This document shows, in pieces, positions 2,362 to 57,468 of a DNA stretch of 64,000 nt. Source of the stretch: a virus. The notes beneath the pieces are model-generated. The model saw only the letters and a program-made list of their open reading frames with translations, made no database searches and had not been told where the DNA came from. A program made the translations under genes and the position numbers. The stretch is taken from IMG/VR virus record IMGVR_UViG_3300049218_000295, positions 1 through 64,000 of that record. One strand, written 5' to 3'. Each line of letters starts with the position of its first letter. Within the stretch, counting starts at the first letter, position 1.

Positions 2362-2946
2362 ATGATTTCAAGAAATACTCTCATAGGGTTTCACGGCCAG
2401 CAAGGTTCGGGCAAGTCCAAACTCACTACTTTCACAGCCTCACTTTTAGAGCAACAAGGGTATTCTGTAGGGCTTTATGGCATCAAAAGCACCTTTAGTT
2501 GTTACGCCGAGAAGATTGCCTCGGACCTAGGGATGGAGTGGAAGGCAGGAGGAAAGGACCTTCTGGCTTTTAAAGAGTTACAGAAAGCAATTTCGTGCTC
2601 CATTGAACTGCATTATAAGAAAAGCGCCTGGTCAGATTTATTCCGTGATCAAGTGCTGCAACAGCCTGAGACCCAGACCCTCATCGCCGACGACATGAGG
2701 ACACCAATGAATTTTGATGCCTTGGTCCAGATTTCAGAGCACCGGCCCGTGGTCCTTTTCCGATTGCTAGCCTCAGAAGAGATTCGTCGGAAGCGATGCT
2801 CGGCTTTCCGGGAAAATGCTGGCTACACTGAAGAACTACTTGAAAAGCCATCGAGCTTACCCACAAACTTCAACTGGTGGGATATTAACACTGAACTTCC
2901 GATTGAAGAAAGCTACGCGGCGATTAAGGCAGCTTTAGGAGTATGA
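2362..2946 (+). CDS. Deoxynucleoside monophosphate kinase-like P-loop protein
   Basis: 194 residues from the ATG at 2362. A longer frame from the TTG at 2311 would begin inside the -35 box, so it is rejected. The N-terminus has a Walker A loop (GQQGSGKS, about residues 9-16), followed by a DDMRTP segment that resembles the acceptor-nucleotide region of phage dNMP kinases (T4 gp1 family), and a late basic stretch (RRKR) typical of the lid. It would convert dNMPs to dNDPs for DNA synthesis. In this genome it is also a candidate for phosphorylating an unusual purine dNMP made by the PurZ/PurB pair; that is inference. AAGGAA lies 12 bases upstream of the start. It overlaps the next kinase gene by 4 bases. 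Confidence 0.75.
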   Translation: MISRNTLIGFHGQQGSGKSKLTTFTASLLEQQGYSVGLYGIKSTFSCYAEKIASDLGMEWKAGGKDLLAFKELQKAISCSIELHYKKSAWSDLFRDQVLQQPETQTLIADDMRTPMNFDALVQISEHRPVVLFRLLASEEIRRKRCSAFRENAGYTEELLEKPSSLPTNFNWWDINTELPIEESYAAIKAALGV

Positions 2947-3374
2947 AAGAGCTGGTTATACTTGTAGGACCCCCCGGTTCCGGAAAAACAACCTATTCTA
3001 AGGCATTTCTACCTAATCACCTGCATCTTAGCACCGATTATGGAGCCATCAAGCAAAAATTCAAAGATGGTCTAGCAACGGGAAAAGACATTGTTATCGA
3101 TAGAATGAACCCAACCAAAAAGCAACGTGCAGAGTATATTAAGCCTGCAATAGAGGCGGGCTACCATGTCCGCGCCGTGATGTTCAATACACCTAAACTA
3201 GAATGTCGGCGTCGCCTAGTTCTCAGGAAGGACCACCCAACTCTCGATAACAGAAGTATCCCACGCTTGCACATGGTATTAGCGTATTTCTACAAAGAGT
3301 TTGAAGAGGTTGATGAAATTCCTGTCACCTTCGTCGAACCAGAAAATCTTTCCACGGACCCAGACGCTCCATAG
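2943..3374 (+). CDS. Polynucleotide kinase-like P-loop protein
   Basis: 143 residues. The N-terminus has a clear Walker A (GPPGSGKTT, residues 9-17), then an STDY segment, then IVIDRMNPT followed by RAEYI, the pattern seen in the kinase domain of T4 Pnk and other AAA_33 proteins (VDNTN..R..Y). It would phosphorylate a 5'-OH end or another small acceptor. There is no phosphatase domain, so it is shorter than T4 PseT/Pnk (about 300). It starts in a 4-base overlap with the dNMP kinase and its last 50 bases overlap the convergent purB gene. Confidence 0.78.
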   Translation: MKELVILVGPPGSGKTTYSKAFLPNHLHLSTDYGAIKQKFKDGLATGKDIVIDRMNPTKKQRAEYIKPAIEAGYHVRAVMFNTPKLECRRRLVLRKDHPTLDNRSIPRLHMVLAYFYKEFEEVDEIPVTFVEPENLSTDPDAP

Positions 3375-4545
3375 TAGAATTAAAATCCGTCGGCGGGTTC
3401 TGTTTGAGTTCCCAGTAAGGGTCGGCATGACCCTCACGTTCTTGCAGGTAGTACCTAAGTATCTCGGTGAGACACTCAGGGTTCTCGCGTAATTCTCCAA
3501 CCGCTCTTTCATGCGAATAAATTGTCTTGGACATCCCACGAGTTAACGACTTCAACCCATGATAAAGGTAAACCCACCCTTCCAGCATTTGCCTGTTGAT
3601 AATAGAGTTAGAAAGGTCCCTCAAGCCACGAGTGTCGGAGTTAGCCTCAAACGCGGTGAGCAGTGTTTTCTCCGCAATGGTGAAGGCCCCTTCTGCATTT
3701 TCGAAATCGATTGGGTTCACTTTATGAGGCATAGCTGAAGAACCAGCCTGTCCCGAGCTGGATTCGTATAGGAGCAATTTTCTTTGGCAGTGGTCCCATA
3801 GAGCACGTGCCAGTGCTCGCATCTTGACCGCAGTGGCCACCCCGGAAAGGAGTGTGGCTTCATTGCTCGGTCCAAGTTGCAACAGGCCATGTGTATCCGT
3901 TGGAGTTACAATCTGGACTCGTTCTAGCTGAGCGAGACGATAGGCGACCTTCTTTGACCAAGCCGTCGCCATGTCTTTGAAATCCGAAAGGCCGGAAATC
4001 AGCCTCAGCGCCGTCAGTTGACCATTAGAGCCCCCAAGTCGGTACTCGGGCAAGACTAGACCAATACGCCTGCATTTGGCACGTAGATAGGGGCCGATAA
4101 ACACTGGAGTCGCTGGCTGGCCATGGGTGTGAGCCAAAATGGCAACTGGAAGCTGCTTTTCATATTCGCGAATAGCTAGCTCCACTTCGCGGAGTAAATC
4201 ATTGATCATTAAGATGCAGAGGTGCACTTGCGTCCAACGAGCGTTGTGCATGATGTCCTCGGACGTCAGGCCGTAATGAAAAGAAACCTCCGGATAGTCT
4301 TCTTCTAGCACCTGGATCAGCGCAACCATTTGGTGCTTGGTGACCTGCTCTTTAACCGAAACTCGCTTAGCCAGAAGTTGGCGGTCCGGGTACATGGGCA
4401 AATGTAAGTCATTATTCAACACTTCTGCATAAGTCAAAGACCAGAGGGACATGAAGTATACAAAGTTTTCTTCCCCGACAATTGGAGAAAGCGCCGACAG
4501 CGAAGCTGCGTACCGACCATCGAGAACGGAAAAACTCACTGTCAC
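3325..4545 (-). CDS. purB: Adenylosuccinate lyase (PurB family)
   Basis: 406 residues, GTG start at 4543-4545 with CAGG just upstream. It belongs to the fumarase/aspartase superfamily: HTHGQPATP at residues 139-147 contains the catalytic-type His, and the signature loop GSSAMPHKVNP lies at about residues 268-278. The closest family pattern is bacterial PurB (LDGRYA.....LSPIVGE at the start). Cellular PurB removes fumarate from adenylosuccinate and SAICAR. In Z-genome phages the same reaction turns 2-aminoadenylosuccinate into dZMP, normally using the host enzyme. Here the phage carries its own copy and also a PurZ-like synthetase at 52398-53528. The protein is a little shorter than E. coli PurB (456). 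Confidence 0.93.
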   Translation of the reverse strand: MTVSFSVLDGRYAASLSALSPIVGEENFVYFMSLWSLTYAEVLNNDLHLPMYPDRQLLAKRVSVKEQVTKHQMVALIQVLEEDYPEVSFHYGLTSEDIMHNARWTQVHLCILMINDLLREVELAIREYEKQLPVAILAHTHGQPATPVFIGPYLRAKCRRIGLVLPEYRLGGSNGQLTALRLISGLSDFKDMATAWSKKVAYRLAQLERVQIVTPTDTHGLLQLGPSNEATLLSGVATAVKMRALARALWDHCQRKLLLYESSSGQAGSSAMPHKVNPIDFENAEGAFTIAEKTLLTAFEANSDTRGLRDLSNSIINRQMLEGWVYLYHGLKSLTRGMSKTIYSHERAVGELRENPECLTEILRYYLQEREGHADPYWELKQNPPTDFNSTMERLGPWKDFLVRRR

Positions 4546-4612
4546 TTTTACCTGATATACCCTGCTACCCTAGGCCATAAGAAAATCTTATATTACGACG
4601 CATAAAGTTAGT

Positions 4613-4685
4613 GGGGGCCACTGGGGAGCTAGGGTTTATGCTTTGCGCTGACCTTGGCAGAAGGTTCGATTCCTTCGGCCCCGCA
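4613..4685 (+). other. tRNA-like element with intact T-arm but degenerate 5' half
   Basis: The 3' half is canonical: T-stem GAAGG/CCTTC (4660-4664 and 4672-4676) around a TTCGATT loop. A GGGGCC (4614-4619)/GGCCCC (4677-4682) acceptor stem closes a 70-base domain. A D-arm-like GAGC/GCTT hairpin with a GGG-containing loop lies at 4626-4643. The remaining 16 bases cannot hold a normal 17-base anticodon arm plus a variable loop, and no CCA is encoded. It looks like a decayed or truncated tRNA, possibly a recombination remnant. It sits in the gap between purB and apt, opposite in strand to both. Confidence 0.4.
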
Positions 4686-5225
4686 TTACAGCTTCAGCAA
4701 TGACTGAACAGGGTGCTGCAACTTTTTGCGGCCTTCTAAGGCTTCAAGTTCAATGAAGAAACGGTGCCCCAAGACCTTTGCTCCGGCCCTCTCGCAGATT
4801 AGTTCTACGGCATGCGCCGTGCCACCGGTAGCCAAAACATCGTCGATAATGATTACCCGGTCCCCCTTGGCCAAAGAGGTGGCGTGGACTTCCAGACAGT
4901 CATCCCCGTATTCGAGGTTATAGGCTTGCTTCAAGACTTCCCGAGGCAGTTTTCCGGGCTTCCGGGCAACCACCAGACCCACATGTCGGATTGCGGCTAT
5001 CGCGGCTCCCAAAATGAACCCTCTGGACTCGATGGCCACCAGCTTGTTGAAGTCGACTTGCATTGATTTGTTGATTTGGTGAATCAGGGACTGGTATGCA
5101 ATCGGGGTCTCGAGAATTGGTGTGATATCCCGGAAAGTGATTCCAGGCTTCGGGAAATCGGGGACGCTAATCAAAAGAGACTCTAAGTAGGCCGGTTGCC
5201 AGTAATTTTGTTCGGGAAACGTCAT
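4686..5225 (-). CDS. apt: Adenine phosphoribosyltransferase
   Basis: 179 residues, the normal length of bacterial Apt. Landmarks are PGITFRDITP (about residues 27-36), VAIESRGFILGA (63-74), ARKPGKLP (87-94) and the PRPP-binding loop VIIIDDVLATGGT (124-136). It converts adenine and PRPP to AMP and pyrophosphate in the cytoplasm. A GGAGG ribosome site precedes its ATG. Its start codon overlaps, on the opposite strand, the start of the plus-strand gene at 5224. Apt is rare in phages. Next to purB and with a PurZ-like enzyme elsewhere in the genome, it may recycle adenine freed when adenine nucleotides are degraded; that link is inference. Confidence 0.95.
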   Translation of the reverse strand: MTFPEQNYWQPAYLESLLISVPDFPKPGITFRDITPILETPIAYQSLIHQINKSMQVDFNKLVAIESRGFILGAAIAAIRHVGLVVARKPGKLPREVLKQAYNLEYGDDCLEVHATSLAKGDRVIIIDDVLATGGTAHAVELICERAGAKVLGHRFFIELEALEGRKKLQHPVQSLLKL

Positions 5226-42734: not shown

Positions 42735-45700
42735 ATGGGCAAGATTCAAGACAAAGATATTAAATCCGCAGCAGACCTTGCCCTCGAAGGTTTTCCAATA
42801 TCCGACCTCCCCAACGATGATAAGATCTACATCGCTTCACTAGGAAAGACTCTCGCCAACGCCATCACCAGCAACGACCTCCTCGGCCCAACCGGTCCTC
42901 AGGGTACTACAGGTGTTGCCGGAGCAACCGGTCTTGTGGGTAGTCAAGGGACAACAGGCATTCAGGGCGTTACGGGCGTAGCGGGCACCGCAGGCTCACA
43001 AGGTAGTACGGGACTTCGGGGAACCACAGGAGTTGCGGGAAACCAAGGCTCCACAGGCGTTGCCGGAGCAACTGGGGTTCAGGGCAACCAAGGCGTTACG
43101 GGTGTAGCGGGCGTTAATGGTGTAACTGGTGTTGCAGGTGTTAACGGGGCTACTGGTGCCCAAGGAACGACCGGACTGACTGGTACTCAGGGTGCGACTG
43201 GCGTAGCGGGTGTTAACGGTGTAACTGGTGTTGCTGGAATTAACGGGGCTACCGGTGTCCAAGGGACCCAGGGCGCGACGGGTATTGCGGGTGTTAACGG
43301 AGTTACTGGAATCGCAGGCGCGACAGGCGTACAGGGTGTTACCGGAATCCGGGGCTATACCGGCATCGAAGGCACCACTGGCGTTGCGGGAAATCAAGGT
43401 TTAACCGGAACCCAGGGTCTACAGGGTTTAACCGGAGTCTCCGGTTCTAACGGAGTCACTGGGGTGCAAGGCGCAACAGGCGTCGCGGGTGCAACCGGGC
43501 GCGACGGCCCAACAGGTTTTCAGGGAGTCACAGGCGTTCAGGGCTCGACCGGCGTTGCCGGAGCCACGGGATACCAGGGCGTAACAGGAATCCAAGGCCA
43601 AACAGGCGTTGCCGGTATGACCGGCGTTCAAGGTATCACTGGTCTTTTTTCGTCAGCAGGCTATACAACCCAAACTCCAACGGTTCAGAAGTTTCTCACT
43701 GCAACTTCGGGAACGTACACGACGCCATCCAACGTCGCCTATATTATCGTTGAAATGGTCGGTGGCGGTGGTGGGGGCGCACCAGGGGGGACTCAATCTG
43801 TAGCTGCAACTTCGGGGGGAACTACAACTTTTGGCACTTCGTTTTTAAGTGCTACTGGTGGTGGCGGTGGTGGTCAGCCTCCTGGAGGTTCGGGAGGAAC
43901 AGTTTCTATTGGCTCTGGGGCCATTATTCTTGCTCAACTAACCGGAGGCCAAGGTTCTGCTGGCTCTTCGGTGGCGTTTTCTGCAGGCGGCGGCGGAGCG
44001 GCCTCTCCTTTTGGCGGTGCGGGTGGTGGCGGTCAAAACAGTGGTGGTGGCTATTACGGGATTGCGAATACTGGTTCAGGTGCGGGTGGTGGTGGAGCAA
44101 CAGCCACAAATCCTTCCGGCGGTGGTGGTGGGGCTGGTGGATATTTAAAAGTTTTAGTGCCAACTCCAGCGACTTATTATTCATACGCTATTGGTGGCGG
44201 CGGCGCATCTGGCACTGGATCGACCTCTGGCGGAGCTGGTGGTTCGGGCGTAATCATTGTTACCGAGTATTACAACCAGACTGTCGCGTCGGGCATCACG
44301 GTTACAGCTTCGACTCCTCCAACTAAGACTATTTACCTGACTGCTGGCGCGACGGGCACTTACACAACTCCTAAGGGCGTACAGTATATCTCTGTTCGGA
44401 TGGTGGGCGGTGGTGGTGGCGGTGCGGGGTCATCAACAGTAGCTGCAAATGGCGGCAGCGGCGGAACAGGTGGAACTTCATCTTTTGGTACAAACCTTCT
44501 AACTGCAAACGGTGGTTCAGGTGGTGGCGGTGGAGGAGCAGGTGGTGGACCTGGCGGCAGCGCATCTTTGGGGACTGGACCCATTGGGATTGGCGTAACT
44601 GGTGGTAACGGCGACAGTGCGTCAACATCAATCAGTGGTTTTTCTCCTGAAAGCGGCGAGGGTGGATCATCCGCTTTGGGTGGTGGCGGTTCAGGCGGTG
44701 CAATCAATTTTGGGGTCGGGGGCTCAGGAAATCCCAATACCGGCGGTGGAGGCGGTGGAGCTGGAGGCGGAAACATTTCAGGCGGCTCTATCGCAGGAAG
44801 TGGAGGTGGCGCAGGTGGGTACATTGAAGCAATTATTTCAAACCCAAGCGCTACATATTCTTACACAGTAGGCGCAGCGGGCACTGCTGGCGCAGCGGGA
44901 ACCAGCGGTAGTGCTGGTGGAATTGGTGGCACCGGACTCATCGAAGTGACTGAGTACTATACGGCTTATGCGACCGGCGGCTTCTCTGCTGGCGGTGCAA
45001 ACGTCCCCACAGTTCAGAAATTCTTAACTGCTACTTCTGGGACCTACACGACACCATCCAACGTCATCTACATTGAGGTGGAGCTGGTGGGCGGTGGTGG
45101 CGGTGGCTCTGGCTCCGGCACAACTGCTGGAGCAGGCGGCACGGGCGGAAATGGTTCTGCTTCTACTTTTGGTACAAGCCTGTTATCTGCAGGCGGCGGA
45201 ACGGGCGGAACTTGGGCGGGCGCGGGTGGCGCAGGGTCTACATCGACAACAATAAACACCCCCGCTATACAAGTAACCGCCGTAGGCGGAGGATCGGGCA
45301 GCGGAGCCGGAAACTCAAGTTCCGTAGCCCAATCAACAACTCCCGGCGCAGGCGGAAGTTCTTTTTTTGGCGGCAACGGCGGCGGCGGCGACCAAGCAAC
45401 GGGTGTCGGACATAGCGCGGCCTCTAACTCTGGTTCAGGCGGCGGCGGCGCTTTAGGCGCTAACCAAGCAAGTGACTACCCTGGATCGGGTGGCGGCGCT
45501 GGTGCCTACGTGAAAGCCGTCATCACCAACCCTTTGTCGTCTTATTCATGGACGGTTGGTTCAGGCGGTGCGGCTGGGACTGCGGGCTCGGCAGGATATG
45601 CAGGCGGCGCGGGTGGCTCTGGTGCGATCATCGTCACTGAATACTATGCAAATGGAACCGTGGGCACAGCAACTAATGTTACTGGGGTTGTAGCTCAAAT

Positions 45701-46172
45701 AAACGGCGGAACTGGGACCACATCACAAGCCGGTGGCATACTAACAGGAACAATAACTACCCAATCGACCGCCGTCACGGCAACAAGTTATACAACCTTC
45801 AGCAACAGTCCTGGGTTCTCGTTCACACCTGTTGTTAGTGGTACATACAAAATTCGTTGCAACGCCACCGTGGATTGCTACAACTCAAGTTCTAGTGGTC
45901 CTACTGGCGTTGTTAGAGTGTACAACACAAGCGGTGGTGCAAGTTTGCTGGCGGAGTCTGCAGGCTGCATTGCAAATACCGGTTTCAGCGGAGCGTCGGC
46001 CTCTCAGCCGACAATACCTATTGAAAGCTGGTACACCCTTACTGCAGGCGTGGCCTACGTATTCGATGTCCAAGGCAAGGCGGTAACAGACATCTATGGA
46101 GGTAGCGGAACACAATTATATCTAAGTGGAGGCGACGCGCCACTCCATATGTTCGCAGAGCGCATCTTATAG
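42735..46172 (+). CDS. Collagen-like and glycine-rich tail fibre protein
   Basis: 1145 residues. A short N-terminal region (1-50) is followed by about 250 residues of Gly-X-Y repeats built from GVTGVAG, GATGVQG and similar. Then come three repeats of a glycine-rich module, each starting with a Thr-rich strand (ATSGTYTTPSNV or similar) and VEMVGGGGGG-type stretches. The last 150 residues are a beta-rich C1q/TNF-like region (SGTYKIRCNATVD and later VYNTSG). Such Gly-rich modules form polyglycine-II bundles in some phage adhesins (established for S16-type adhesins). Likely the host-binding fibre tip. It follows the collagen-like gene after 4 bases. Confidence 0.85.
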   Translation: MGKIQDKDIKSAADLALEGFPISDLPNDDKIYIASLGKTLANAITSNDLLGPTGPQGTTGVAGATGLVGSQGTTGIQGVTGVAGTAGSQGSTGLRGTTGVAGNQGSTGVAGATGVQGNQGVTGVAGVNGVTGVAGVNGATGAQGTTGLTGTQGATGVAGVNGVTGVAGINGATGVQGTQGATGIAGVNGVTGIAGATGVQGVTGIRGYTGIEGTTGVAGNQGLTGTQGLQGLTGVSGSNGVTGVQGATGVAGATGRDGPTGFQGVTGVQGSTGVAGATGYQGVTGIQGQTGVAGMTGVQGITGLFSSAGYTTQTPTVQKFLTATSGTYTTPSNVAYIIVEMVGGGGGGAPGGTQSVAATSGGTTTFGTSFLSATGGGGGGQPPGGSGGTVSIGSGAIILAQLTGGQGSAGSSVAFSAGGGGAASPFGGAGGGGQNSGGGYYGIANTGSGAGGGGATATNPSGGGGGAGGYLKVLVPTPATYYSYAIGGGGASGTGSTSGGAGGSGVIIVTEYYNQTVASGITVTASTPPTKTIYLTAGATGTYTTPKGVQYISVRMVGGGGGGAGSSTVAANGGSGGTGGTSSFGTNLLTANGGSGGGGGGAGGGPGGSASLGTGPIGIGVTGGNGDSASTSISGFSPESGEGGSSALGGGGSGGAINFGVGGSGNPNTGGGGGGAGGGNISGGSIAGSGGGAGGYIEAIISNPSATYSYTVGAAGTAGAAGTSGSAGGIGGTGLIEVTEYYTAYATGGFSAGGANVPTVQKFLTATSGTYTTPSNVIYIEVELVGGGGGGSGSGTTAGAGGTGGNGSASTFGTSLLSAGGGTGGTWAGAGGAGSTSTTINTPAIQVTAVGGGSGSGAGNSSSVAQSTTPGAGGSSFFGGNGGGGDQATGVGHSAASNSGSGGGGALGANQASDYPGSGGGAGAYVKAVITNPLSSYSWTVGSGGAAGTAGSAGYAGGAGGSGAIIVTEYYANGTVGTATNVTGVVAQINGGTGTTSQAGGILTGTITTQSTAVTATSYTTFSNSPGFSFTPVVSGTYKIRCNATVDCYNSSSSGPTGVVRVYNTSGGASLLAESAGCIANTGFSGASASQPTIPIESWYTLTAGVAYVFDVQGKAVTDIYGGSGTQLYLSGGDAPLHMFAERIL

Positions 46173-51429: not shown

Positions 51430-52155
51430 TCAAACTGTGGGTGGCGCGACGACCTCGGTCACCGTAAATGGGCACTTGCTCCGTTCGTGCTCGAGCAAAC
51501 AGGCCCGGATATTCTTGAACCAAGAACGGGTGTTGTTGTCGTAATAGTAGCCGCGAGTCTTAGCCTCATCCTTGGTGTTGAAGTCTACTCCGGCGTGGAC
51601 TTTAATCATCGGATGACGAGCAAGTTCGATTGCAGCTTTAATATCGTAATGCGAGGCAATGTAGATGGTAGCCATCGAATCAAAAAGACCACGGTGGGCA
51701 AAGTCCAAGGTGTACCGGTGGTCTGCCGCCAAATACTTTAAAGCTCGCATTTTCATCTGCTCGGGATAGGCAAAATCCACCTGGGTGTCCACCCAGGGAA
51801 TTTGAGGCAATTCTCCGACAAGCGCCGTGTACTTTTGCTCAATCATAGCCTTATCGAGCGCAATTCCACCGTGGACGATGACAGCTACCGAGTGCCGAAG
51901 AAGCAGGCCGAGCCGCCCCAAGGCTTGGCCAAGGGGCACTCCAAAGGTTTCAAGCATCTTATCGTCGATACCTGTAAGTTCCGTGATTTCGGGTTTGAGC
52001 GGTGGACAGTTGGGGTCCTGATCATAAATAAGTTCACTTAGGAATGTCACCGGCTTGCGCGTCTCGACATTCCAAAGCACCGCTCCGACTTCGGTAATGC
52101 GGTCCGTGTTCGGGTCAAGGCCCGAAGTTTCTAGGTCCAGCGCTGTAACAAACAT
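51430..52155 (-). CDS. DEDDh-type 3'-5' exonuclease (DnaQ-like)
   Basis: 241 residues. TALDLETSGLDP (Asp7, Glu9) is exo motif I, VHGGIALDKAMI is motif II in altered form (usual His-Asn replaced), and HRGLFDSMATIY is the motif III His...Asp. It would proofread or trim 3' ends; no polymerase domain is attached. The C-terminal 70 residues (HPMIKVHAGVDFNTKDEAK) match the small extra domain seen in related phage exonucleases. Confidence 0.87.
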   Translation of the reverse strand: MFVTALDLETSGLDPNTDRITEVGAVLWNVETRKPVTFLSELIYDQDPNCPPLKPEITELTGIDDKMLETFGVPLGQALGRLGLLLRHSVAVIVHGGIALDKAMIEQKYTALVGELPQIPWVDTQVDFAYPEQMKMRALKYLAADHRYTLDFAHRGLFDSMATIYIASHYDIKAAIELARHPMIKVHAGVDFNTKDEAKTRGYYYDNNTRSWFKNIRACLLEHERSKCPFTVTEVVAPPTV

Positions 52156-52397: not shown

Positions 52398-53528
52398 TTA
52401 TTCGAGCCAAATATAATCTTCGTGGTCCGGGCCAGAGCCAATCATCGCAACGGGCAGTTCGGTAACTTCTTGCATCTTGTCCACATATTGACGCACACTC
52501 TTGTGCAAGTTGCGGTATTCTTTAATGCCACCACGAACCTTATAGGAAGACCAATCAATGTACTGTGGAAAGTTAAGAACGAGCTTGGTGGCCCCGCAGA
52601 AATCCGCAGAATCTTTAAGTAATTTCCAGGATGGGGTAAAGACTCGGCGAATCTTTTTGGTCACAGTGGTGCGCTCGCGCTCGGCCAGAATTGCAATTTC
52701 ACTCTCTGGCATACCAGCCTCACGTCCAACTTGCTCCCAGGTCAGCTCTTTTTGGTCGTCAAGAACATCACCCGAGTAACCAATTTGTTTGCCGTCGGCG
52801 TCAAAATTGGAACCCACCCGGATTGGGAAACTACGGACATTGAGATAGACGTCTCCTACCATTTCAGGTAGGATGCCGAAGTCAGCATACGCCTGTTGAG
52901 GCGTGCAATCGCGGAAAGTGCAATGCGGATAGTGTGTTCCGTAGTTGACAGAGAGAGCAAAACCTTGGGAAACTTCGTGCAGAAAAGTATGCATACTTGC
53001 AAACTCGGCGCGGACCGCTCGCATGAACGCCATTGGCTTGATAGCCCGTTCTGGGTTAACTCTGCCCCAGGTTTTGAGTTCTTGTCCACGCATAGCTTTA
53101 TCCGTAAAGGCGGCCCCACTGCCCGACATCGTGGAAGAAATATGTAGAGTAGATTGCGAACCGGTTGGTGACTCGGCCTCGATGTGGCGGTCCTCGACTA
53201 CAATGGCGCGTTCATGAATTTCGAGATCTTCAACTCTATAGCCTGTTTCTTCCAGCTCCTTATGAAGCTGCTTCATCTGGAAACCAGAATTTGGACCTAC
53301 CCAAAGTGTTGGGCGTTTGCCCACCAGTTTGGGTAAGATGGCTCCCGTTGGGAGCGCTTTGGCTACAAATTTCACTTCGCCCTTGAGAGCGGTGTGTCCG
53401 GCGTTCGGGAAATTGCCCGATGAGAGATTAGGGATATCAAAAATGTCTGCCAGACGACAGGACACGGCTCCCTTGGCCGAGCTTCCCCAGGCTGAATCAA
53501 CAATAGTGTTAAACTTTCCTTTTTGCAT
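52398..53528 (-). CDS. purZ: PurZ-type 2-aminoadenylosuccinate synthetase
   Basis: 376 residues (PurA about 430). P-loop region VDSAWGSSAKG (10-20): where PurA has GDEGKG, the catalytic Asp is Ser16, the hallmark change in phage PurZ. NFPNAGHT (39-46) keeps the His. PHCTFRDCTP (201-210), ELTWEQ (261-266) and TTVTKKIRRVF (287-297) agree with vibriophage PhiVC8 PurZ as I recall it, not with PurA. PurZ joins dGMP and Asp, using ATP/dATP or GTP, to give the precursor of dZMP, which PurB then completes. The phage's own purB is at 3325-4545. The start ATG overlaps the upstream gene by 20 bases. Confidence 0.9.
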   Translation of the reverse strand: MQKGKFNTIVDSAWGSSAKGAVSCRLADIFDIPNLSSGNFPNAGHTALKGEVKFVAKALPTGAILPKLVGKRPTLWVGPNSGFQMKQLHKELEETGYRVEDLEIHERAIVVEDRHIEAESPTGSQSTLHISSTMSGSGAAFTDKAMRGQELKTWGRVNPERAIKPMAFMRAVRAEFASMHTFLHEVSQGFALSVNYGTHYPHCTFRDCTPQQAYADFGILPEMVGDVYLNVRSFPIRVGSNFDADGKQIGYSGDVLDDQKELTWEQVGREAGMPESEIAILAERERTTVTKKIRRVFTPSWKLLKDSADFCGATKLVLNFPQYIDWSSYKVRGGIKEYRNLHKSVRQYVDKMQEVTELPVAMIGSGPDHEDYIWLE

Positions 53529-54795: not shown

Positions 54796-56490
54796 TCATC
54801 CGTGGCAGGCAGCGCATTCTTCCTTTGAACGGGAAGCCAAGTCGCCCTTCAAAACCCCTTCAGTACGGAGATAGTAGAGCGTTTTCAAACCGGCCTCCCA
54901 GGCTGCAATATGAACCTCGTGAATGTACTTGGCGCTAGAATTGCTAGCGAAAAAGAGGTTCAAGCTCTGAGCTTGGTCGATGTGTTTCTGACGCTGAGCC
55001 GCTTGCTTTACCAAGGCATGCTGATTGATTTCGCGAGCGGTCAGAAATACCTCGCGTTCCTGGTCCGTAAGAAAAGCCAAATGCTGCACTGAACCCGATT
55101 GCGCATTAATGGTTTTCCAGACTTCGGTCGTGTTCTTGCCGTAGGCTTCAAGAACTTCAAGTAGTTTGGGGTTCTTACGGATGAAAGTACCTTTGGCCGA
55201 CTTCTGAGAGAAAACGTTGGCCGGGAGCGGCTCAATTCCTGCACTGTGACCACCGGAAATGGTGGAATTGGATACAGTCGGAGCCACAGCAAGCAAGTGT
55301 GTATTGCGACGACCAAAGCCCTTACACCACTCGGGTTCGCCCATCTCTTTTGCCAATTCTGCTGTTGCCTTTTCAGCTTTGTCGCGCATCGTTTTGAAAA
55401 CAAGATTGTTGAGCATCATGGCATCAAAGGAGTCAAAAGGCATCATATTGTTTTGGAGAAGAGTGTGCCAGCCGAGAACACCAATTCCAATGGCCCGACC
55501 CTTGACCGCAGAGCGCAGGCTGTTTTCAAGGCCCGGTTTGCCTTTAGCTTTCAAGATGTACTCGTCAAGAACAGCATCGAGAAAACGAACTGCGGTCTCG
55601 ACCAAGTCTGTATCTCTCCATTCGTTCCAACGAACAAGGTTGAGCGAGGAAAGACAACAAACGAATGAATGCTGGCCGTCCGTATAAAGAGTGATTTCGG
55701 TGCAAATATTGCTGGTGCGGACGCGGAGGTCGTGTTTGGCATAGCAGTCAGGGTTGGCTCGGTTCACATTGTCCGAGAAAAAGAGATAGGGCTCCCCAGT
55801 AGTCACCCTAGCGTCAAGAACATCTAACCAAATTTTCCTTTTGCTAGAATCTCCATCCAACATCTCCTTCATCCATTTATCGCTAATGCACACTCCGTGG
55901 TTGGTATTCAAACAGCGCCGATTCATGTCGCCCGTCGGGCGGCGAATGTTAATGAATTCGTCAATATCTAGATGGTCAATATCTAAATAGAGTGCCGAGG
56001 CCGCGCCTCGAGTTTTTCCTTGTTTCACCGAGTGGGTAGTGGAATCGTAAACTTTTGCCCAGGGAATCACGCCTTCGGACTCGCCATTACCCGCAACTTG
56101 CTTACCGCGACCACGAATATCACCTAGATAGACACCAACGCCCGCGCCATTCTTAGAAAGCATAGCGAGTTCGTGATTCTTCTGAAAGATGCTGTCAATA
56201 CTATCCTCAACGTGAATCGAATTGCAGGAAATGGGCAAGCCGCGAGAGGTTCCCATGTTGGAAAGGATGGGCGAGGCCGGACACAGCCAATTTTTCCACA
56301 TGGCATCGAAGTACTTCTTTTCCCAAACTTTCGGTTCTTTGGAATAACTCGCAGCAGCTTTAGCCACGCGTTTGTACATGCCACGGGGAGTCTCGCCATC
56401 AAGTAGGTAGCCACCCTGTAAGGTCGCTAGTCCTGGTTCGTCAAGCCACACGGGGGCCTCATTGGCCTGCTTCAATTCATCAAGTATCAT
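54796..56490 (-). CDS. nrdA: Ribonucleotide reductase class I, large subunit
   Basis: 564 residues, shorter than E. coli NrdA (761) because the N-terminal ATP-cone is missing, so dATP inhibition through that domain is unlikely. Landmarks: PASPILSNMGTSRGLPISC (substrate-site Cys), KNGAGVGVYLG, SNICTEI (active-site Cys/Glu loop), and a C-terminal CAAC pair for reduction. It reduces NDPs to dNDPs. A missing ATP-cone fits a phage that needs high dNTP levels and perhaps an altered purine pool. Coupled to nrdB 15 bases upstream. Confidence 0.94.
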   Translation of the reverse strand: MILDELKQANEAPVWLDEPGLATLQGGYLLDGETPRGMYKRVAKAAASYSKEPKVWEKKYFDAMWKNWLCPASPILSNMGTSRGLPISCNSIHVEDSIDSIFQKNHELAMLSKNGAGVGVYLGDIRGRGKQVAGNGESEGVIPWAKVYDSTTHSVKQGKTRGAASALYLDIDHLDIDEFINIRRPTGDMNRRCLNTNHGVCISDKWMKEMLDGDSSKRKIWLDVLDARVTTGEPYLFFSDNVNRANPDCYAKHDLRVRTSNICTEITLYTDGQHSFVCCLSSLNLVRWNEWRDTDLVETAVRFLDAVLDEYILKAKGKPGLENSLRSAVKGRAIGIGVLGWHTLLQNNMMPFDSFDAMMLNNLVFKTMRDKAEKATAELAKEMGEPEWCKGFGRRNTHLLAVAPTVSNSTISGGHSAGIEPLPANVFSQKSAKGTFIRKNPKLLEVLEAYGKNTTEVWKTINAQSGSVQHLAFLTDQEREVFLTAREINQHALVKQAAQRQKHIDQAQSLNLFFASNSSAKYIHEVHIAAWEAGLKTLYYLRTEGVLKGDLASRSKEECAACHG

Positions 56491-56505: not shown

Positions 56506-57468
56506 CTACGCATTAAAAACCTCCAGCCAATTTTTGGTTCCTTTGGCATAATCACTGACGCGGCTCGCGAAAAAATCACTGTGCGAGACGCCGCCCGAGA
56601 GCACATCAAACCAGTCCATGTTAAGGAGTAACGCCTTATCAATATTGGTCCACTTCGATTTCAGACCCAGGTCGTGCAGCTTCGTGTTGCAGCGGAAGCG
56701 GATGAAAGCCTTGAGGTCCTTAACCGACAGTCCTTCCACCGGGCCGAGTTCGAATGCTTTGTCGATGAAAGCGTCTTCGAGGGCGATAGTGAGCTTGGCA
56801 GCGTCGTAAATTTCACCTTTTAGCTCGTCGGTCCACACTTCTGGATATTCCGCGATAAACTGCTTAAATAACCGACAACCTGCTTCCGAGTGGAGCGATT
56901 CGTCCTTGATACTGAACGCGATGATTTGCCCCAGGCTCTTCATTTTGTTAAAGCGCGAAAAGTTGAGTAAGACTGCAAAGGAAGAGAAGAGGTTCACGCC
57001 TTCATTGAAGGCGGAGAAGATGGCGATAGAGCGAGCGATTTCTTGTTTCGTTTTGCCTTTGGTTTCGATTAGCCTATCGATTTTGGCTTTGGCCGTCGGC
57101 TCGTGAAGGAACGCCGAAAAGTCCTCGAGACCGAGCGATTGATTGAGGTAGGCATAAGAAACTGCGTGTACGGACTCCATAGAGCCAAATGCCGCCGCCA
57201 TCATCTGAATTTCAGGCTTTTTGAACCATTTGGCCACCATCTGGGTCCAGTACTCTTGGATGAAGATTTCAGACTGCGTGAAACCCTTCAGGATGTTGCC
57301 AATAACGGAACGCTCAGCATCGGTGAGCTTGGTCTTCCAATCATTGATGTCATCCGACATCGCGATTTCAGTATGAAGCCAGTGCGACTGCTGCTGCTGC
57401 TCCCAGTAAGTGTAGGCCCAATCGTACTCAAAAGGGCTATAGGTAGCTCTAGGAGTTAATAACGGCAT
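56506..57468 (-). CDS. nrdB: Ribonucleotide reductase class I, small subunit
   Basis: 320 residues. Diiron ligands: Glu34, Glu98-x-x-His101, a Glu in FNEGVNLF and Glu-x-x-His in DESLHSE. The radical Tyr is Tyr105, four residues after His101, as in E. coli NrdB (Tyr122). So this is a classic tyrosyl-radical class Ia type enzyme. First gene of the nrdB-nrdA unit; a hairpin structure lies upstream at 57497-57541. Confidence 0.94.
   Translation of the reverse strand: MPLLTPRATYSPFEYDWAYTYWEQQQQSHWLHTEIAMSDDINDWKTKLTDAERSVIGNILKGFTQSEIFIQEYWTQMVAKWFKKPEIQMMAAAFGSMESVHAVSYAYLNQSLGLEDFSAFLHEPTAKAKIDRLIETKGKTKQEIARSIAIFSAFNEGVNLFSSFAVLLNFSRFNKMKSLGQIIAFSIKDESLHSEAGCRLFKQFIAEYPEVWTDELKGEIYDAAKLTIALEDAFIDKAFELGPVEGLSVKDLKAFIRFRCNTKLHDLGLKSKWTNIDKALLLNMDWFDVLSGGVSHSDFFASRVSDYAKGTKNWLEVFNA

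What the first reader, a model, noticed from the sequence alone, without database searches (positions are those of the whole stretch)
3325..4545. Phage carries its own PurB next to the PurZ pathway
Known: described Z-genome phages rely on host PurB for the second step. Here a full-length lyase with both signature motifs is phage-encoded, 48 kb from purZ. It may be tuned for 2-aminoadenylosuccinate in the deoxy form, giving a self-contained pathway.
Basis: partly seen in the sequence, partly recalled or inferred. Interest (0 to 1): 0.7.

Follow-up and report, generated by a model that had tools for sequence, protein, structure and literature searches.

The report
Phage lyase completing Z-base synthesis
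A large phage carries both enzymes, PurZ and a PurB-type lyase, that would turn dGMP into the unusual DNA building block dZMP; several unrelated phage lineages have done the same, so many Z-phages probably do not rely only on the host for the second step, although no activity has been measured.

Summary
The gene is real: window 3325-4545 (-), 406 aa, an adenylosuccinate lyase (ASL/PurB) of the E. coli type with every catalytic residue kept, 47.9 kb from a PurZ with the diagnostic Asp-to-Ser change (52398-53528, -), inside a phage record of 168,948 bp. In IMG/VR, 14 of 50 PurB-bearing contigs carry a Ser-type PurZ and 18 an Asp-type PurA. In at least four Z-contigs the two genes are neighbours on one strand. 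Z-phage PurBs do not form one clade (AU p = 4.5e-5): PurB was recruited repeatedly. None of ten tested PurZ+PurB phages carries purC or purH. Best reading: the lyase splits the PurZ product dSMP to dZMP and fumarate. Tuning for a 2-amino or deoxy substrate is not shown; the one odd active-site residue is Gln72, where relatives have Asp or Glu. A self-contained pathway is not shown: no DatZ, MazZ/DUF550 or family A/B DNA polymerase was found.

The parts
3325..4545 (-). purB: adenylosuccinate lyase of the E. coli type, 406 aa, GTG start
4330..4335 (-). His71-Gln72 codons: conserved ASL His kept; the neighbouring Asp (SaPurB Asp69, E. coli Asp92) is Gln here, Asp or Glu in the other sequences read by eye
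4255..4266 (-). Thr94-Ser95-Glu96-Asp97, signature TSxD
4117..4128 (-). Thr140-His141-Gly142-Gln143; His141 = E. coli His171, proposed general acid
3712..3744 (-). GSSAMPHKVNP (residues 268-278), mobile signature loop; Ser269 = E. coli Ser295, proposed general base
52398..53528 (-). purZ: 2-amino adenylosuccinate synthetase, 376 aa; closest solved structure phiVC8 PurZ 6FM1
53481..53483 (-). purZ Ser16 codon (WGSSAKG), replacing the catalytic Asp of PurA
51430..52155 (-). RNase_T/DnaQ-like exonuclease beside purZ; a homologue also sits beside purZ in G002 and G003
54796..56490 (-). ribonucleotide reductase large subunit, could supply dGDP; about 1.3 kb upstream of purZ with two or three small ORFs between
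56506..57468 (-). ribonucleotide reductase small subunit
4686..5225 (-). apt: adenine phosphoribosyltransferase, next gene upstream of purB; possible purine-salvage companion
2943..3374 (+). P-loop kinase-like protein (AAA_33), convergent with purB and overlapping its 3' end by 50 bp; a nucleotide kinase role is possible but untested

Best explanation
The gene encodes a working adenylosuccinate lyase that the phage uses as the second enzyme of its Z-base pathway. Phage PurZ joins aspartate to dGMP to give dSMP (N6-succino-2-amino-dAMP). The phage lyase then removes fumarate by the standard ASL beta-elimination (Ser269 on the signature loop as base, His141 as acid, active site built by several subunits of the oligomer) to give dZMP, which kinases raise to dZTP. 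Encoding the lyase frees the phage from the level or regulation of host PurB during infection. Shown here: the gene, its family, its intact catalytic residues, the PurZ partner, the repeated independent pairing, and the absence of purC and purH. Inferred: the reaction on dSMP, and that the virion DNA contains Z.
For: Family and fold: ASL by Pfam and NCBIfam, and the top 50 PDB fold matches are all ASLs. All catalytic residues kept. PurZ partner with the Ser signature. PurB occurs in all Gordonia and Streptomyces PurZ phages and in MaF61. 14 of 50 PurB contigs in IMG/VR hold a Ser-type PurZ, about 0.004 expected from the scan base rates. purB and purZ are neighbours on one strand in G094, G083 and G057 and, by coordinates, in G076. 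Several acquisitions: one clade of Z-phage PurBs rejected, p-AU 4.5e-5. A phage with a 62% identical PurZ (G002) carries a different ASL subfamily. No PurC or PurH in ten PurZ+PurB phages.
Against: No activity has been measured. Host PurB is reported to do this step for phiVC8 and S-2L (PMC8342488, PMC12884076), so a phage copy is not strictly needed. Twelve of 16 PurZ phages tested lack it, as do two of the three phages with the closest PurZ, though these records may be fragments. PurB also occurs with Asp-type PurA (18 of 50). The protein is very divergent (28% at best, long branch) and has Gln at a conserved Asp position. No Z-specific polymerase, DatZ or MazZ was found here.
Confidence: 0.75

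Rival explanations
1. General purine supply: the lyase mainly splits host-made adenylosuccinate to AMP, helped by the neighbouring apt, to feed (d)ATP or ATP pools, and its presence with PurZ is incidental.
For: apt is the next gene; 18 of 50 PurB contigs in IMG/VR carry an Asp-type PurA, where this is the likely role.
Against: This phage's only detected synthetase is PurZ. A Z-phage would be expected to lower, not raise, dATP (own knowledge). Neighbouring purB-purZ gene pairs occur in other phages.
Confidence: 0.13
2. Part of de novo purine synthesis: the lyase splits SAICAR to AICAR, as auxiliary purine genes do in some phages.
For: Bacterial PurB has this second activity (PMC2917274).
Against: No PurC or PurH homologue in this or nine other PurZ+PurB phages, while both controls rang.
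Confidence: 0.03
3. Decayed or repurposed lyase: the divergence and Gln72 mean it lost ASL activity or acts on another fumarate-releasing substrate.
For: Long branch, 28% identity at best; Asp-to-Gln at a position that in S. aureus PurB contacts the sugar and orients the phosphate-binding Arg; below NCBIfam cut-offs.
Against: All catalytic residues intact, open frame, best profile and fold matches all ASL.
Confidence: 0.06

Closest known systems
Gordonia phage Ghobes / Archimedes PurZ0 phages with PurB (gp36, gp38)
   Same: Phage genome with a Ser-type PurZ and its own PurB-like lyase.
   Different: Their PurB is short (377 aa in Ghobes), groups with other Z-phage PurBs and carries HE where the window has HQ; they have DpoZ-1, DutZ and DmtZ (PMC12884076), none found here.
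Flavobacterium phage MaF61 (PQ858689) ORF141 PurZ + ORF149 ASL
   Same: 168 kb phage, E. coli-type PurB with PurZ; RNR large and small subunits 42% and 40% identical.
   Different: PurB only about 22% identical and keeps HD; carries a family B polymerase and an HD hydrolase weakly like DatZ.
Streptomyces phages Galactica, Keanu, Spocter, Hiyaa
   Same: PurZ (Galactica: Ser signature, over the NCBIfam PurZ cut-off) plus PurB.
   Different: PurB of the TIGR00928 type in a Z-only clade with Ghobes; the genes are about 5 kb apart.
E. coli PurB (2PTR/2PTQ)
   Same: Same subfamily motifs (DGRY, PHKVNPIDFEN) and all catalytic residues.
   Different: Window protein is 50 residues shorter, Asp92 is Gln, roughly 22-28% identity to E. 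coli-type ASLs.
Described Z-pathway of phiVC8, S-2L, SH-Ab 15497
   Same: PurZ first step.
   Different: phiVC8 and SH-Ab have no lyase in their records; host PurB is credited (PMC8342488, PMC12884076).

Membership tests
Adenylosuccinate lyase (PurB), E. coli subfamily | Match to family profiles | tested here: met
   Lyase_1 3.2e-12 above cut-off; PRK09285 2.9e-37 and TIGR00928 1.9e-31 best hits but below curated cut-offs; ASL_C 32.2 against cut-off 35
Adenylosuccinate lyase (PurB), E. coli subfamily | Catalytic residues: His71, Thr94, Ser95, His141, Gln211, Ser269, Lys275, Asn277, Glu282, Arg309, Ser314, Arg318 | tested here: met
   106-sequence alignment
Adenylosuccinate lyase (PurB), E. coli subfamily | Conserved acidic residue after the motif His (SaPurB Asp69) | tested here: not met
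   Gln72; Asp or Glu in the other rows. A departure at a substrate-contacting position, not a feature the profiles demand
Adenylosuccinate lyase (PurB), E. coli subfamily | ASL fold | tested here: met
   AlphaFold2 model pLDDT 73.7, pTM 0.78; top 50 PDB matches all ASL, TM about 0.7
Adenylosuccinate lyase (PurB), E. coli subfamily | Cleaves adenylosuccinate or SAICAR | not testable with these tools
   needs an assay
Z-genome (PurZ) phage | PurZ with Ser or Gly in place of catalytic Asp13 | tested here: met
   WGSSAKG, Ser16; PurZ model NF038379 best (180 bits, cut-off 300 not reached), phiVC8 PurZ best in PDB
Z-genome (PurZ) phage | DpoZ family A polymerase | tested here: not met
   no PF00476 match in the record; record may be incomplete, and S-2L also lacks DpoZ (PrimPol is its sole possible polymerase, PMC8065100 abstract)
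Z-genome (PurZ) phage | DatZ, MazZ or DUF550 pool-control enzymes | tested here: inconclusive
   none found by phmmer with single queries; divergent ones could be missed
Z-genome (PurZ) phage | 2-aminoadenine in virion DNA | not testable with these tools
   needs nucleoside mass spectrometry

The most novel reading that the evidence does not exclude
Z-phages repeatedly captured ASLs of several subfamilies and some, including this one (Gln72 at the sugar/phosphate-contacting Asp position), became specialised for the 2-amino-2'-deoxy substrate, so that a dedicated 'PurB-Z' enzyme class exists.
Probability: 0.15. Interest if true: 0.65.

Novelty: new variant of a known kind. Interest (0 to 1): 0.5.

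Why it matters
Papers on Z-DNA assign the second step of dZTP synthesis to host PurB. The survey here shows that many Z-phages carry their own lyase, from at least three ASL types and by repeated gain, which suggests that this step limits Z synthesis in some hosts. That is directly testable in isolated phages such as Ghobes, Galactica and MaF61, and it gives enzymes for making dZTP without relying on host enzymes.

Tried and rejected
Near-identical DNA in GenBank phages: none. Direct relatives of the window PurB by its own sequence in IMG/VR: none. PurB in Acinetobacter phage MD-2021a and Microcystis phage MaAM05: those stretches look like bacterial chromosome, so not counted; short unannotated 'phage' records with purB were likewise not counted. 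De novo purine role: rejected for lack of PurC and PurH. Inheritance together with purZ: in G002, with the 62% identical PurZ, the lyase is of another type, and G001 and G003 have none detected. Recent host gene capture: not supported, 28% at best and GC as in the phage. tRNA gene between apt and purB: ARAGORN none, Rfam only sub-threshold. Reading the 2'-OH discrimination from sequence: not possible, because in S. aureus PurB the 2'-OH is held by a main-chain carbonyl. MaF61 paper: no mention of these genes.

Full report
What is there. The window is the first 64 kb of a 168,948-bp IMG/VR virus record with phage portal, terminase, ligase, RecA-like recombinase, sliding clamp and DnaB-like helicase genes. 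At 3325-4545 (-) lies a 406-aa ORF with a GTG start. Pfam finds Lyase_1 and ASL_C; NCBIfam's best hits are adenylosuccinate lyase PRK09285 and TIGR00928, below their curated cut-offs; all 22 PDB sequence hits but the last, weakest one are ASLs; the AlphaFold2 model (pLDDT 73.7, pTM 0.78) matches only ASLs among its top 50 PDB hits. In an alignment of 106 lyases every catalytic position is kept.

PurZ. The synthetase at 52398-53528 (-) reads WGSSAKG where PurA has WGDEGKG. PMC12884076 reports Ser at this place in all 147 phage members of its PurZ group. Its best solved relative is phiVC8 PurZ, and the alignment also keeps PNAGHT, QGF.LS, PIRVG and TTVTKK.RRV. It lies 47.9 kb from purB.

Is a phage PurB with PurZ new? 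In papers I could search, no description was found: PMC8342488, PMC12884076 and PMC12783734 assign the step to the host. In public records, it is not new. tblastn with Ghobes and Galactica PurB finds annotated PurB in four Gordonia phages (six records) and four Streptomyces phages (five records), the same record counts as Gordonia and Streptomyces PurZ hits. Flavobacterium phage MaF61 carries both genes. A profile search over 16 PurZ phages finds the lyase in Ghobes, Galactica, Keanu and MaF61, and not in phiVC8, SH-Ab 15497, ZP6, PMBT28, BUCT555, Bm1, OH, Kokobel2, Preamble, Goodman, Parvaparticeps or BpsS-140.

Survey of viral contigs. Of 50 PurB-bearing IMG/VR contigs, 35 hold a PurA/PurZ-family gene. 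By catalytic residue, 14 are Ser (PurZ), 18 Asp (PurA) and three could not be read, possibly because of inserts. Of 50 PurZ contigs, six hold a Lyase_1 gene. From the scan base rates less than 0.01 would be expected. The base rates come from motif scans, contigs are not independent, a few PurA contigs may be host DNA, and 'no synthetase' includes fragments: two contigs without one carry PurBs identical or nearly so to those of contigs that have one. So purB accompanies whichever synthetase the phage has. In G094, G083 and G057 purB and purZ are neighbours on one strand, and by coordinates also in G076.

Origins. In a tree of 61-62 lyases, PurBs of Z-phages fall in several places: a Z-only clade of ten rows (support 99) with Galactica and Ghobes; scattered rows among PurA-phage lyases; and the window protein and MaF61 on separate long branches beside E. 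coli-type bacterial PurBs. Holding them as one clade is rejected (p-AU 4.5e-5); long branches make exact placement unsure. Three phages share PurZ at 62-66% identity with this one while the rest of the genome is hardly alike. One of them, G002, has its own lyase whose motifs resemble human ADSL (from memory), a different type. Thus purZ and purB travel separately and the pair was formed repeatedly.

How it probably works. PurZ makes dSMP from dGMP; the lyase eliminates fumarate to give dZMP. None of ten PurZ+PurB phages has PurC or PurH, so a de novo role is unlikely. In S. aureus PurB the ribose 2'-OH is bound by a main-chain carbonyl, and Asp69 lies near O4' and orients the phosphate-binding Arg310 (PMC2917274). 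Host-type enzymes are therefore likely to accept deoxy substrates, in line with host PurB serving phiVC8. The window protein has Gln72 at the Asp69 place, the only such case among the sequences read here. Whether that changes specificity is unknown.

Limits. No measurement shows that this phage has Z-DNA. No family A or B polymerase, DatZ, MazZ or DUF550 was found in the record, which may be incomplete, so a self-contained pathway is not shown.

Noticed in passing
window 52398-53528; L103, L104, L105: PurZ is 62-66% identical to PurZ of three phage contigs whose other shared proteins are only about 20-40% identical, so purZ seems to move between distant large phages.
   Followed up: partly
L227 (G002, contig 33.0-34.5 kb): Phage ASL whose motifs resemble human ADSL (SSAMAYKRNPMKSERITSLARL, RTLDDSAGKRI), over the TIGR00928 cut-off, in a PurZ phage.
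   Followed up: partly
window record, 1-168948: No family A or B DNA polymerase was detected although clamp, clamp-loader-like, helicase and two exonuclease-like genes are present; how the genome is copied is unexplained.
   Followed up: partly
window 51430-52155: A DnaQ-like exonuclease lies beside purZ here and in G002 and G003 at 22% identity, a possible Z-related proofreading or pool enzyme.
   Followed up: no
G075, G082, G095 (jumbo contigs; loci L216, L208, L223): PurA/PurZ-family matches lie in frames without a readable catalytic motif (G075 and G095 frames are 811-821 aa), possibly intein or other inserts.
   Followed up: no
window 4611-4684 (+): tRNA-like stretch with a T-arm between apt and purB, below Rfam threshold (tRNA-Sec 16.8 bits) and not called by ARAGORN.
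   Followed up: partly
L105 (G003, contig 79281-80601): The PurZ match is spread over more than one frame, possibly a frameshift or insertion.
   Followed up: no
L008:8181-8822 (-): Iron/manganese superoxide dismutase gene in the same phage record.
   Followed up: no
L010:1285-2046 (-): tRNA-His guanylyltransferase-like gene in the same record.
   Followed up: no
window 42735-46172 (+): 1145-aa protein with collagen triple-helix repeats, probably tail or fibre.
   Followed up: no
CAKLQF020000007.1, MW495066.1: Records named Acinetobacter phage MD-2021a and Microcystis phage MaAM05 hold bacterial chromosome genes around purB and look mislabelled.
   Followed up: partly
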